A stretch of 64,000 bases of DNA from Herbiconiux solani NBRC 106740 (GTDB lineage Bacteria; Actinomycetota; Actinomycetes; Actinomycetales; Microbacteriaceae), in contig NZ_BCST01000001.1 in the NCBI RefSeq assembly GCF_001571005.1, forward strand, positions 248,001 to 312,000. Direction: 5' to 3'. Numbering within the stretch: the first letter of the stretch is position 1; each line of letters opens with the position of its first letter. The position numbers were made by a program, and so were the translations under genes. Positions 2,784 to 14,476 of this stretch are shown here, one piece after another. The notes under the pieces are model-generated. The model did no database searches and was not told the DNA's origin. It saw only the letters and a list, made by a program, of their open reading frames with translations.

Positions 2784-4015
2784 CCGATCTCCACTCCGTC
2801 CGTTCGCTCCGCGCCGAGGAAGGCCCCTTCTTCGGCGAGTTCGGCGGCCGCTTCATGCCCGAGTCCCTGATCGCCGCGCTCGACGAGCTCGACGAGGCGT
2901 ACCAGCTGGCCAAGCTCGACCCCGAGTTCCACCGCGAGCTCGCCGAGCTCGGCCGCACCTACACCGGGCGCCCCTCGATCATCACCGAGGTGCCCCGCTT
3001 CGCCCGCCACGCCGGCGGCGCCCGCATCATCCTGAAGCGCGAAGACCTGAACCACACCGGTTCGCACAAGGTCAACAACGTGCTCGGGCAGGCCCTGCTC
3101 GCCAAGCGCATCGGCAAGCACCGCCTGATCGCCGAGACCGGCGCCGGCCAGCACGGCGTCGCGACCGCGACGGCCGCCGCCCTGTTCGGCATGGAGTGCG
3201 TCGTCTACATGGGCGAGGTCGACACCGAGCGCCAGGCCCTCAACGTGGCCAGGATGCGCCTGCTCGGCGCCGAGGTCATCCCTGTCACGAGCGGCACCCG
3301 CACCCTGAAGGACGCCCTGAACGAGGCCTTCCGCGACTGGGTCGCGAACGTCGAGAGCACCCACTACCTCCTTGGCACGGTGGCCGGCCCGCACCCGTTC
3401 CCGGCGATGGTCCGCGACTTCGTCAAGGTCATCGGCGAAGAGGCGCGTCAGCAGGTCATCGACCTAACCGGTGCGCTTCCGGATGCGGTCACCGCGTGCG
3501 TCGGCGGCGGCTCGAACGCGATCGGCATCTTCCACGCCTTCCTCGACGACGCGACCGTCGGCCTCTACGGCTACGAGGCCGCCGGCGACGGCGTCGACAC
3601 CGAGCGGCACGCTGCCACGATCACGATGGGCCGCCCCGGCGTGCTCCACGGGTCGCGCAGCATCATGCTGCAGGACGAGGACGGCCAGACCAGCGACTCC
3701 CACTCGATCTCCGCGGGCCTGGACTACCCCGGCGTCGGCCCCGAGCACGCCTGGCTCTCCTCGATCGGCCGCGCCAGCTACCGCCCGGTGACGGATGCGG
3801 CGGCGATGGAGGCGTTCCGGCTGCTCTGCACCACCGAGGGCATCATCCCGGCCATCGAGACGGCACACGCCCTGGCCGGCACGATCGAGCTGGGCCGCGA
3901 GCTCGGCCCCGACGCCACCATCCTCGTCTCGCTCTCCGGGCGCGGCGACAAGGACGTCGAGACCGCCGGCCGCTGGTTCGACGTGCTCGACGAGCAGGGG
4001 AACGCGAAGATATGA
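2780..4015 (+). CDS. trpB: Tryptophan synthase beta chain
   Basis: PLP enzyme that condenses indole (channelled from TrpA) with serine to give tryptophan. 411 residues, normal for the TrpB1 type. The PLP-binding lysine is K97 in [10 protein letters not shown]; the phosphate-binding loop GGGSNAIG is present, as are the E and D residues of KREDLNHTG. Starts by ATGA overlap with trpC and ends by ATGA overlap with trpA, so subunit stoichiometry with TrpA can be set by coupled translation. No unusual substitutions seen. Confidence 0.97.
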
Positions 4016-4809
4016 CCGCCGTCACCGGCTCGCCCGTCGGCAGCACCATCGCCCAGGCGAAGAGCGATCGGGCCGGAGCCCTCGTCGGCTACCTCCCGGT
4101 CGGCTTCCCGACCCTCGACGCGAGCATCGACGCCGCCGTCGCCCTGGTCGAGAACGGGGTCGACGTGCTCGAGCTCGGCCTGCCGTACTCTGACCCGGTG
4201 ATGGACGGCCCGGTCATCCAGGCCGCCACCGTGACCGCGCTGGCGAACGGCACCCGGCTCCGCGACGCCTTCACCGCGGTGGAGCGCATCCGGGCCCGCG
4301 TCGACGCGCCGGTCCTGATGATGACCTACTGGAACCCGGTGCTGCAGTACGGCGTCGACCGCTTCGCCGACGACCTCGTCTCGGCCGGTGGCGCCGGGCT
4401 CATCACCCCCGACCTCACGGTCGACTCCGGCGCCGACTGGCTCGCCGCCAGCGACCGCACCGGGCTCGATCGCGTCTTCCTCGCCGCGCCCACCTCCACC
4501 GACGAACGGCTCCGGATGGCGGTCGAGAACAGCCGCGGCTTCGTCTACACCGTCTCGACGATGGGCATCACGGGAGCCCGCGGCGACCTCGACGCGGCGG
4601 CACGCACCCTCGCCGGCCGGCTCCGCGCGCAGGGCGCCGAGAGCCTCGCCGTCGGCATCGGCGTCTCGACCGCCGCGCAGATCGCCGAGATCCTGACCTA
4701 TGCCGACGGCGCGATCGTCGGTTCGGCCCTGGTCAAGGCGCTCTCCGACGGCGGCGTCCCCGCGGTCGGCCGTCTCGCGGCCGAGCTCGCGACGGGCACG
4801 GGCCGGTAG
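4012..4809 (+). CDS. trpA: Tryptophan synthase alpha chain
   Basis: Cleaves indole-3-glycerol phosphate to indole and glyceraldehyde 3-phosphate and passes indole to TrpB. 265 residues, a TIM barrel. Catalytic acids correspond to E54 ([11 protein letters not shown]) and D65 (MDGP). The later glycine-rich phosphate-binding segment (TGARGDL) is intact. The ATG at 4012 sits in the ATGA overlap with trpB; the frame is open farther upstream but only as a shadow of trpB. The gene ends 8 bases before the next start, so the lgt-like gene is probably co-transcribed. Confidence 0.95.
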
Positions 4810-4817
4810 CGGCGACC

Positions 4818-5843
4818 ATGCTGCCGCAGAGCATCCCGGCCCCGGGGGCCGTGTCCTTCGACCTCACCCAGTGGCTGGCGAGTCTGGGCCTGGAGTTCTT
4901 CGGGCAGTGGAACCTGCCCATCCGCTTCTCGGCCATCGCCGTGGTGGTCGCGATCGTGGTCGCCCTCTGGCTGACCTCGCGTCGGCTCACAAAGCGGGGC
5001 GCCGAGCCCGGCATCGTGGTCGATCTCGCGATCTGGGCCGTGCCGCTCGGCTACATCGGGGCCCGCCTCTGGTTCGTGCTCGAGCATCCGTCGGTCTACT
5101 TCGACGGCTCGGCCTTCCCCGGCGCGCTCTTCGCGGTCTGGGACGGCGGGTACACCTTCACCGGCGGCCTGATCGGCGGCGCGATCGGTGCGCTGATCGG
5201 CTCGCGGCTGAGCGGCATCCGATTCTGGTCGTTCGCCGACGCGCTCGCCCCGGCGCTCCTGGTCGGCCAGGCCATCGGCAGGGTGGGGGACTACTTCGAC
5301 CTGCTGCGCTTCGGCGTGCCGACGACCCTGCCCTGGGGCCTCGAGGTGCCGGCCACGACTCCCGGCTTCCCCGCGGGGCTCGCCGATGGCACCCTCTTCC
5401 AGCCCGTCTTCCTCTACGAGATCGTCTGGGATCTGGTCGGCGCCGCCCTCCTCGTGCTCGTGGCGCGCCGGTTCGCGCTGCAGTGGGGCAAGGTCTGGGG
5501 CCTCTACCTGATCTGGTTCGGCCTCGGCCGCTGGTGGATGGGCGGACTGCGGATCGACGTCGGCCCCCTTCTCGCGGGCGTGCGGCTCGAGGTCTGGGCC
5601 GGTTGGCTCGCGATCGTGCTGGGCCTGGTCGTGCTCGTCGTCCAGGCGCGGCGTCACCCCGGCGTCGAGACCGGCCCGTATCGGCCCGGTGCGGAGTGGG
5701 CCGGTCCTGCTGGGGTAGAATCGACCGACACGTATTCGGACGATGAGCTGGAGGGCGAGGACGCCCCCGAGCTCGCCGAGAACGAGGCAGTCGAACCGAG
5801 CGCCACAAGTGAAATCGGAGCGAAGTCCCCGTCCGCGCGATGA
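4818..5843 (+). CDS. Lgt-family membrane protein with substituted catalytic residues
   Basis: 341-residue, multi-span protein clearly of the prolipoprotein diacylglyceryl transferase fold, which normally moves diacylglycerol from phosphatidylglycerol to the lipobox cysteine. Alignment by eye to E. coli Lgt numbering (constant offset of 12) gives the arginine R143 as R155, G154 as G166 and R239 as R238, all kept. However Y26 is S38, H103 is T115, N146 is D158, E151 is L163, Y235 is F234 and E243 is G242. H103 is not conserved in all actinobacteria, but the others normally are. The tail after about 285 is acidic and probably disordered. An authentic lgt is therefore expected elsewhere, since a lipobox protein is encoded at 13703. 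The gene may be a repurposed paralogue; function unknown. Confidence 0.85.
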   Translation: MLPQSIPAPGAVSFDLTQWLASLGLEFFGQWNLPIRFSAIAVVVAIVVALWLTSRRLTKRGAEPGIVVDLAIWAVPLGYIGARLWFVLEHPSVYFDGSAFPGALFAVWDGGYTFTGGLIGGAIGALIGSRLSGIRFWSFADALAPALLVGQAIGRVGDYFDLLRFGVPTTLPWGLEVPATTPGFPAGLADGTLFQPVFLYEIVWDLVGAALLVLVARRFALQWGKVWGLYLIWFGLGRWWMGGLRIDVGPLLAGVRLEVWAGWLAIVLGLVVLVVQARRHPGVETGPYRPGAEWAGPAGVESTDTYSDDELEGEDAPELAENEAVEPSATSEIGAKSPSAR

Positions 5844-5875
5844 CAGCACCCGGCGCGGAGAAGGACAAGTAGACA

Positions 5876-5899
5876 CCGCAGGGCCGTGAGACCCCGCGG
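5876..5899 (+). other. Weak hairpin in the gap before gltB
   Basis: CCGC-A-GGG pairs with CCC-C-GCGG around an 8-base loop, in the 123-base gap between the lgt-like gene and gltB. There is no T-run after it. It could be a weak terminator for the trp-lgt transcript or part of a gltB leader. A TACCCT hexamer at 5901-5906 is a possible gltB -10. Confidence 0.25.
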
Positions 5900-5966
5900 A
5901 TACCCTGATATCAATGGGCCATTGGCGTCCCAGTTCCCTTATGAATCACGTAGAGGACGGTTCTCT

Positions 5967-11997
<6,031 letters not shown>

Positions 11998-13702: not shown

Positions 13703-14476
13703 ATGCCTCCGAAGAGACTCATCATCCGCCTCGTCGGCGCAGGTGCGGCGATCGCCACGGCCTTCGCCCTGTCCGGCTGCTCCACGATCATGCCGCTCTT
13801 CGGCATCCAGCCGACGCCGGGCGCCGCCAACTCCTCGACCACGACCACGACGAGCGAGGAGCCCGCCGCGACCACCGACGCCGGCCTCCAGTTCGCCTCG
13901 GTCTTCACCGACATGGGCTCGGTGCACCCGACGGTCGACATCGCGAACAAGCTCCAGCTGAAGCTCGACGTCTGGACCGAGCAGAAGACGCACGACTGGA
14001 CCCCGATGGCCGACAAGCGGTTCTCCTTCGTCATCGGCGTCTACGACAACACCGTCTCGGCCGAGGCCCCGTTCGACCAGAAGCGGCGCGTGTACATGTC
14101 GAACATCTCGGTCACGGCCAAGACCACCACCACCTCCGGCGCGGTTCAGACGGCGTACTCGCTGAACACCGACCCGCTGAAGGTGACCCTCGACCCCGAG
14201 GCCCTGCGATCCGATCAGGGCCTCGGTCTCCTCATCACCTCGCCCAAGGGCGGGTTCCAGCTGGAGTCGCAGCAGATCGGCGTGCTGAGCGACGACACCC
14301 AGGGCGTGATGCTCGACTTCGCGTTCCAGGTGTCGTACGAGAACAGCCCGCTCTCGAACACGTACACGACGCAGGTCGTGCACCAGTACGTGCCGATCGC
14401 CATCTTCTCCGAAGCCGTCGCCGCCGCGAGCACCCCGACCCCGACGGCGACCCCCACCCCCATTCCGGTGGGATAG
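13703..14476 (+). CDS. Putative surface lipoprotein of unknown function
   Basis: 257 residues. Residues 1-26 form a lipoprotein signal: basic MPPKR, hydrophobic core, and lipobox L-S-G-C with C26 as the predicted lipidated residue. A Ser/Thr/Glu-rich linker follows, then a region rich in alternating polar/hydrophobic strands (about 55-235) suggesting a beta-sandwich, and a short Thr-Pro repeat tail (STPTPTATPTPIPVG) typical of cell-wall-spanning linkers. I recognise no named family. I prefer the ATG at 13703 (GAAAG nine bases upstream) to an in-frame GTG at 13694. It stands alone between hairpins and is convergent with the tRNA. Confidence 0.75.
   Translation: MPPKRLIIRLVGAGAAIATAFALSGCSTIMPLFGIQPTPGAANSSTTTTTSEEPAATTDAGLQFASVFTDMGSVHPTVDIANKLQLKLDVWTEQKTHDWTPMADKRFSFVIGVYDNTVSAEAPFDQKRRVYMSNISVTAKTTTTSGAVQTAYSLNTDPLKVTLDPEALRSDQGLGLLITSPKGGFQLESQQIGVLSDDTQGVMLDFAFQVSYENSPLSNTYTTQVVHQYVPIAIFSEAVAAASTPTPTATPTPIPVG

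What the first reader, a model, noticed from the sequence alone, without database searches (positions are those of the whole stretch)
4818..5843. Lgt-family protein that has lost most known catalytic residues
The fold-level match to prolipoprotein diacylglyceryl transferase is strong, and a constant 12-residue offset to E. coli Lgt shows R143, G154 and R239 kept. Y26 has become S38, N146 D158, E151 L163, Y235 F234 and E243 G242. Y26 and N146 are reported as essential in E. coli. The trp-linked gene in related Microbacteriaceae, as I recall it, has the canonical GNWFNHELFG block where this reads GDYFDLLRFG. Loss at exactly the conserved positions with the rest preserved suggests a repurposed paralogue (lipid binding, altered chemistry) rather than decay. 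A lipobox protein at 13703 implies a second, active lgt in the genome.
Basis: partly seen in the sequence, partly recalled or inferred. Interest (0 to 1): 0.75.

Follow-up and report, generated by a model that had tools for sequence, protein, structure and literature searches.

The report
Lgt copy with altered active site
This bacterium carries two copies of the enzyme that attaches a lipid to lipoproteins, and the copy in the ancestral place has lost residues thought essential yet has still been preserved by natural selection, a change that also arose in several related genera.

Summary
It is the ancestral copy: trpA-lgt-gltB is the usual order (72 of 80 named loci). In the genus, 3 of 16 genomes keep it canonical, 2 keep it altered (this one and G009), and 11 have deleted its body.
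It is not simple decay. The altered pair share 18 derived residues, so the loss predates their split, and both stayed constrained afterwards (codon positions 1/2/3 differ 23/18/43%; dN/dS=1 on both tips rejected, 2dlnL 215).
The change recurs: seven altered trp-linked Lgts in five genera, at least four origins, all N146->D and six of seven Y26->S/D; six of the seven genomes also carry a canonical Lgt.
Best reading: a membrane pseudo-transferase, or altered transferase, kept after another Lgt took over lipidation. Activity and role are untested. A new variant of a known kind; a reported M. smegmatis homologue with Y26H/N146C is the nearest precedent.

The parts
4818..5843 (+). lgt-B: trp-linked Lgt-fold protein with altered active site, 341 aa
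4929..4931 (+). S38 codon, position of E. coli Y26
   Evidence: alignments
5289..5291 (+). D158 codon (GAC), position of E. coli N146
   Evidence: alignments
5304..5306 (+). L163 codon, position of E. coli E151
   Evidence: alignments
5517..5519 (+). F234 codon, position of E. coli Y235
   Evidence: alignments
5541..5543 (+). G242 codon, position of E. coli E243
   Evidence: alignments
5712..5843 (+). C-terminal tail, predicted disordered; pieces of its DNA survive in congeners that deleted the lgt body
   Evidence: pLDDT under 50 in four stretches within 299-338
5716..5721 (+). TAGAAT: probable -10 box of a gltB transcript inside the lgt tail
   Evidence: TAG[AG]AT in 16 of 16 congeners; rare GTA codon in 139 of 151 tails against 2.4% background
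4012..4809 (+). trpA, upstream neighbour in the ancestral order
5967..10547 (+). gltB (glutamate synthase large subunit), downstream neighbour; start codon chosen by me

Best explanation
The gene is the ancestral, trp-linked lgt of its lineage. An Lgt of a different, trp-unlinked clade, present in all 16 genomes of the genus, now does the ordinary lipidation (inferred from its intact residues). Freed from that job, the trp-linked copy lost residues that bind and select phosphatidylglycerol (Y26, N146, E151) and, in this genus, also Y235 and E243 (shown by alignment). It is therefore probably dead or strongly altered as a diacylglyceryl transferase (inferred from E. coli mutants). It kept the Lgt fold and R143 (shown by sequence and model) and has been under purifying selection since the loss (shown by the codon analyses). 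The most likely role is non-catalytic: it binds lipid or prolipoprotein in the membrane and modulates the active Lgt, much as an E. coli Lgt-E151A variant disturbs the endogenous enzyme. That last step is inference.
For: Second canonical Lgt in the genome. The five genus B copies form one clade and the altered pair G000+G009 is sister, both at SH-aLRT 99. The pair share 18 identical derived residues at 237 columns invariant in the three canonical B copies, among them the positions of Y26, N146, N149 and Y235, so loss predates the split. Afterwards: divergence at codon positions 1/2/3 is 0.227/0.177/0.431, p(pos2=pos3) 3.7e-10; omega=1 rejected on G000 (2dlnL 28.8), G009 (37.8) and both tips together (215.2), against a maximum of 2.3 in 40 simulations under the G000 null. 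Parallel cases: G321, G454, G056, G175, G220, all N146D; starred branches force at least 4 label changes. The G321/G454 pair repeats the pattern: 21 identical derived residues at 160 invariant columns, including Y26S, G142E and N146D, then constraint (0.300/0.218/0.446, p 1.2e-8; omega=1 rejected, 33.8 and 24.9). Models of both altered g1 proteins keep the Lgt helices. E. coli Y26A/F/Q, Y235F, E151A/Q and E243A/Q/R failed to complement (PMC4728403, passages); Y26A and N146A failed, and E151A showed a dominant-negative growth effect (PMC13251419, passages).
Against: No expression, binding or activity data. Constraint is weaker than in canonical copies (pos2/pos3 ratio 0.41 against 0.11-0.20). 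11 of 16 congeners deleted the gene, so whatever it does is dispensable. Synonymous sites are saturated: in the 40 null simulations the estimated omega ran from 0.015 to the bound of 10, so only the likelihood-ratio and codon-position tests count, not the point values. omega=1 is also rejected on G056 (53.6) and G175 (93.2), but these are single sequences whose branches include time before the loss, so they do not bear on selection after it. PMC13251419 finds E151A and E243A functional in a lpp-less strain, against PMC4728403. G220 has an S26/D146 Lgt as its only detected Lgt, which could mean that such variants still work; but that genome is 93% complete and LspA was not found in it either.
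Confidence: 0.55

Rival explanations
1. Altered but active transferase: the site now uses another lipid donor or another set of lipoprotein acceptors, with R143 and R239 still doing the chemistry.
For: R143 is kept in 7 of 7 altered proteins and R239 in 6 of 7. Y26 and E151 contact the first PG molecule, called a substrate-selection filter, whereas R143 and R239 line the second site (PMC4728403, passages). N146->D in all five genera suggests a specific change. G220 has S26/D146 in its only detected Lgt. Three g48 genomes have Y235Q in their only detected Lgt, so E. coli rules do not all transfer.
Against: This window's copy also lost Y235 and E243, and G009 deleted the R239-R246 segment, which removes part of the second site. 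Y26F alone inactivates E. coli Lgt.
Confidence: 0.2
2. Relic in slow decay: the gene is on its way to deletion and its constraint only reflects time before the loss.
For: 11 of 16 congeners have already deleted the gene body. The branch is long (0.54-0.55 for G000 against 0.03-0.08 in canonical B copies). G009 has lost 19 residues around TM6-TM7 and about half of the tail. In GC-rich DNA a stop-free frame is weak evidence: 7-33% of neutral simulations at 9-20% divergence have none.
Against: Shared derived residues place the loss before the G000/G009 split, and both tips are constrained after it. G009's gaps leave its frame open. The G321/G454 pair in another genus behaves alike.
Confidence: 0.15
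3. Constraint without a function of its own: the frame is kept because a misfolded membrane protein made with TrpA would be toxic, or because its 3' end carries the gltB promoter.
For: The tail holds a conserved -10-like box, and the gene follows trpA by 8 bases.
Against: The codon tests leave out the tail. Deletion of the body has been tolerated in 11 of 16 congeners, so selection could have removed the gene instead of preserving it.
Confidence: 0.1

Closest known systems
Prolipoprotein diacylglyceryl transferase Lgt (E. coli, PDB 5azb/5azc)
   Different: Y26S, H103T, N146D, N149D, E151L, Y235F, E243G; signature motif broken
Second mycobacterial Lgt homologue MSMEG_5408 of M. smegmatis
   Same: Second copy beside a canonical Lgt, altered at the same two positions, Y26 and N146; presumed low activity (PMC13251419, passages)
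   Different: Y26H and N146C there, S and D here. L120-L123 (H26, C146) look like that class and have neither trpA nor gltB in the stretches fetched; here it is the trp-linked copy that changed
Actinobacteria with two lgt genes (Streptomyces coelicolor)
   Same: Two lgt genes in one genome (statement of PMC13251419)
   Different: That both copies work in S. coelicolor is my recollection; here one copy has lost active-site residues

Membership tests
Lgt family (homology) | Match to PF01790 above the curated cut-off | tested here: met
   160.9 bits, cut-off 24.9
Lgt family (homology) | Lgt fold | tested here: met
Functional Lgt enzyme | Signature motif with N146 and E151 (G142 R L G N146 F I N G E151 L W G154) | tested here: not met
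   reads GRVGDYFDLLRFG
Functional Lgt enzyme | Residues reported as absolutely required in E. coli: Y26, H103, R143, N146, G154, R239 | tested here: not met
   Y26 and N146 replaced; H103 is T here but mostly F or Y in canonical relatives too; R143, G154, R239 kept (list from PMC13251419)
Functional Lgt enzyme | Transfers diacylglycerol from PG to the lipobox cysteine | not testable with these tools
   needs an assay
Pseudoenzyme | Enzyme fold with reported catalytic residues lost | tested here: met
Pseudoenzyme | Maintained by selection after the loss | tested here: met
Pseudoenzyme | Has a non-catalytic function | not testable with these tools
   needs deletion and binding experiments
Pseudogene | Stops or frameshifts, or dN/dS of 1 | tested here: not met
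   open frame; omega=1 rejected on both tips
MSMEG_5408-type second Lgt | Y26H and N146C | tested here: not met
   S and D here

The most novel reading that the evidence does not exclude
When an unlinked Lgt takes over lipidation in Microbacteriaceae, the resident trp-linked Lgt can be converted, repeatedly and along the same path (N146 to Asp, Y26 mostly to Ser, E151 mostly lost), into a new kind of membrane protein that binds lipid or prolipoprotein and regulates, or chemically diversifies, lipoprotein modification.
Probability: 0.25. Interest if true: 0.75.

Novelty: new variant of a known kind. Interest (0 to 1): 0.5.

Why it matters
Lgt is a proposed antibiotic target (PMC13251419, abstract), and the catalytic residues discussed here were mapped with E. 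coli mutants on which two papers disagree (E151, E243). Natural Lgts that lost such residues in parallel, mostly in genomes with a canonical Lgt, give a ready-made test of which residues are catalytic and of whether Lgt-fold proteins can act without catalysis. The NCBIfam equivalog model TIGR00544 passes its cut-off here, so automatic counts of Lgt enzymes may be too high.

Tried and rejected
Rejected: (1) misalignment hiding the Tyr, Asn or Glu: searches agree. (2) Recent duplication inside the genome: copies A and B lie in distant clades. (3) One horizontally spread altered lineage: starred branches force at least four label changes. The catalytic columns were left in that tree, which would pull altered rows together rather than apart. 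G056 and G321/G454 do group (SH-aLRT 87), so those two genera may share one origin or attract as long branches. (4) A known RNA element at the lgt-gltB junction: no Rfam match up to E 1 in window 4700-6200. (5) The stop-free frame as evidence: weak in GC-rich DNA. (6) Conservation of the tail as evidence for the protein: better explained by a promoter.

Led nowhere or limited: the trpBA tree and gltB-region tree do not resolve whether G000 and G009 are sister species. Synonymous sites are saturated in the core alignments (branch lengths reach the bound of 30); rejection of omega=1 on each tip held at caps 1.5, 3 and 6. The stem's omega depends on the alignment: 0.36 and not distinguishable from 1 with the tail (2dlnL 1.3), 2dlnL 4.1-16.5 without it. 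Seven rows were cut from the wrong stretch and were corrected. Some gaps at Y26 are trimming or alignment artefacts (the G002 B copy has the Tyr). One search lacks the two fragments of G168 and one fragment of G266, which were not fetched; rows of G428 (two pieces, 65% complete), G345, G026 and G261 are partial and were not judged. The tree holds one row per genome with trpA in the stretch; left out were L125, L126 and L326 (identical copies of L323, L271 and L324), partial or broken L322, L325, L342, L344-L347, and all but 8 canonical g31 rows. The tree left out L064, L102, L105, L111 and the E. coli row. The 80 loci are the best 80 of 148 found by similarity to the window protein, a biased sample. 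Single-copy genomes were not sampled evenly: the 21 were chosen by me for weak scores, and the 30 g31 loci are the best-scoring ones. Literature; no held paper had both 'lipoprotein diacylglyceryl transferase' and 'pseudoenzyme', nor all three terms; 'N146D' is not in the main text of PMC13251419. Supplements were not read, and of both papers I saw passages only.

Full report

Copies in the genome. PF01790 finds two matches: this one and a canonical one on contig 4. LspA is present, so a lipoprotein pathway exists.

Which copy is ancestral. Of 80 loci from named genomes, 69 have trpA and gltB beside lgt, 3 show gltB alone, and 8 have neither; these 80 were chosen by similarity to the window protein. 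In the protein tree the unlinked copy A of the genus (16 rows, one for each of 16 genomes) falls in a clade with eight other unlinked Lgts, among them Agreia and Frigoribacterium (SH-aLRT 100). The five trp-linked B copies form one clade (99) beside trp-linked Planctomonas sequences (88). So the altered copy is the resident gene.

Fate of the resident gene in the genus. Of 16 genomes, three have a canonical B (G001, G002, G005), two an altered B (G000, G009), and eleven have only 166-286 bases between trpA and gltB. Of these eleven, four still match the encoded tail of lgt at E under 0.001, five weakly (E 0.04-3.5) and two not at all; the hexamer TAG[AG]AT is present in all sixteen.

Decay or use. 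G000 and G009 share 18 identical derived residues at 237 columns where the three canonical copies agree, including the positions of Y26, N146, N149 and Y235; a further 19 columns differ in both but to different residues, 38 differ in G000 alone and 14 in G009 alone. Their common ancestor had therefore already lost these residues. The two differ from each other by 23, 18 and 43% at codon positions 1, 2 and 3. With a home-made codon model on the full-length alignment the estimates are 0.057 for canonical branches, 0.13 and 0.096 for the G000 and G009 tips and 0.36 for the shared stem. On the core alone omega=1 is rejected for each tip (2dlnL 28.8 and 37.8) and for both together (215.2), while 40 data sets simulated under the G000 null gave at most 2.3. 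Caps on branch length of 1.5, 3 and 6 give the same answer. The simulated estimates of omega scatter from 0.015 to 10, so the point values are not reliable; the script is mine and was checked only in this way. The constraint is weaker than in canonical copies. The pair G321/G454 of another genus shows the same: 21 identical derived residues at 160 invariant columns, with Y26S, G142E and N146D among them, and constraint between the two.

Parallel cases. A scan of 398 genomes of the family found a match in 392; 63 of them, read off the table by eye, have two or more. Matches of these 63 plus G002 and G005 were listed and, except for the fragments of G168 and one of G266, fetched. With the sole copies of 11 congeners this made 147 rows from 75 genomes. 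Of 64 rows linked to trpA and/or gltB, five are altered: G000, G009, G321, G056, G175. Of 83 unlinked rows, two have E243N (G285, G150) and five belong to divergent classes with Cys at N146. Genus searches added G454, with two identical loci in an assembly of 12% contamination, and a set of 21 genomes chosen by me for weak scores added G220. All seven altered proteins have N146D; Y26 is S in five, D in one and Y in one; E151 is lost in six and kept in G220; R143 is kept in seven and R239 in six. Six of the seven genomes have a canonical unlinked Lgt; in G220 no second Lgt and no LspA was found, but the genome is 93% complete. Starred branches force at least four changes of this state on the tree. 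In a mutation model with g1 codon frequencies and kappa set to 1.5, an AAC codon first changes to Asp in 24% of cases, so four parallel changes to Asp have a chance of about 0.003. This was noticed after the fact, and Asp may simply be the substitution that the fold tolerates best, since N146A lowers the amount of E. coli Lgt (PMC13251419). A pattern search for the exact altered motif found it in 2 of 398 genomes, G000 and G009.

What the replaced residues do. In E. coli, Y26 and E151 contact the first PG molecule and R143, Y235 and R239 line the second site (PMC4728403, passages). Y26A/F/Q, E151A/Q, Y235F, the tested R239 changes and E243A/Q/R failed there. PMC13251419 (passages) confirms Y26, N146, R143, G154 and R239 as essential but finds E151A and E243A functional in a lpp-less strain, and reports a growth delay with E151A in wild type that its authors read as dominant-negative. 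Three genomes of genus g48 have Y235Q in their only detected Lgt, so E. coli rules do not carry over fully.

Conclusion. The copy is best read as a pseudo-transferase, or an altered transferase, under selection. Shown: homology, fold model, lost residues, second canonical copy, ancestral position, constraint after loss in two pairs, recurrence in other genera. Inferred: loss of ordinary activity, and a role in binding lipid or prolipoprotein and modulating the active Lgt.

Noticed in passing
window 5715-5723 and the tails of trp-linked lgt in other genera: The lgt tail carries a -10-like hexamer TANANT inside a Val-x-Ser motif: Val is the rare codon GTA in 139 of 151 tails with the motif (173 distinct linked loci, 22 without it or not readable) against 2.4% of 3631 Val codons upstream in these genes. 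TAG[AG]AT persists in 16 of 16 congeners, 11 of which deleted the lgt body: probably the gltBD promoter.
   Followed up: yes
window 5914-5963: A block [A/T]TGGGCCAT..., possibly a leader ORF MGH(R/W)RPSS, lies 47-51 bases before the gltB start used in the script in 15 of 16 congeners and 88 bases before it in G013.
   Followed up: partly
L120-L123 (G151, G399, G226, G264): Divergent unlinked Lgt homologues with His at Y26, Cys at N146 and a GRxGC motif, beside a canonical Lgt in the same genome; they resemble the reported MSMEG_5408 class.
   Followed up: partly
L124 (G050:C1:871326-871877): A very divergent Lgt homologue (86.3 bits) with GRFGCFFSGCCVG, Cys at E151 and Leu at E243 in the alignment.
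   Followed up: no
L217 (G285) and L232 (G150), genus g74: Unlinked second Lgt with E243N while the trp-linked copy is canonical: the reverse choice of which copy changes.
   Followed up: no
L330, L339, L340 (G233, G185, G131), genus g48: The only detected Lgt carries Gln at the Y235 position.
   Followed up: no
L341 (G220, genus g16): The only detected Lgt has S26, S142 and D146, and LspA was not found; genome 93% complete in 120 contigs.
   Followed up: partly
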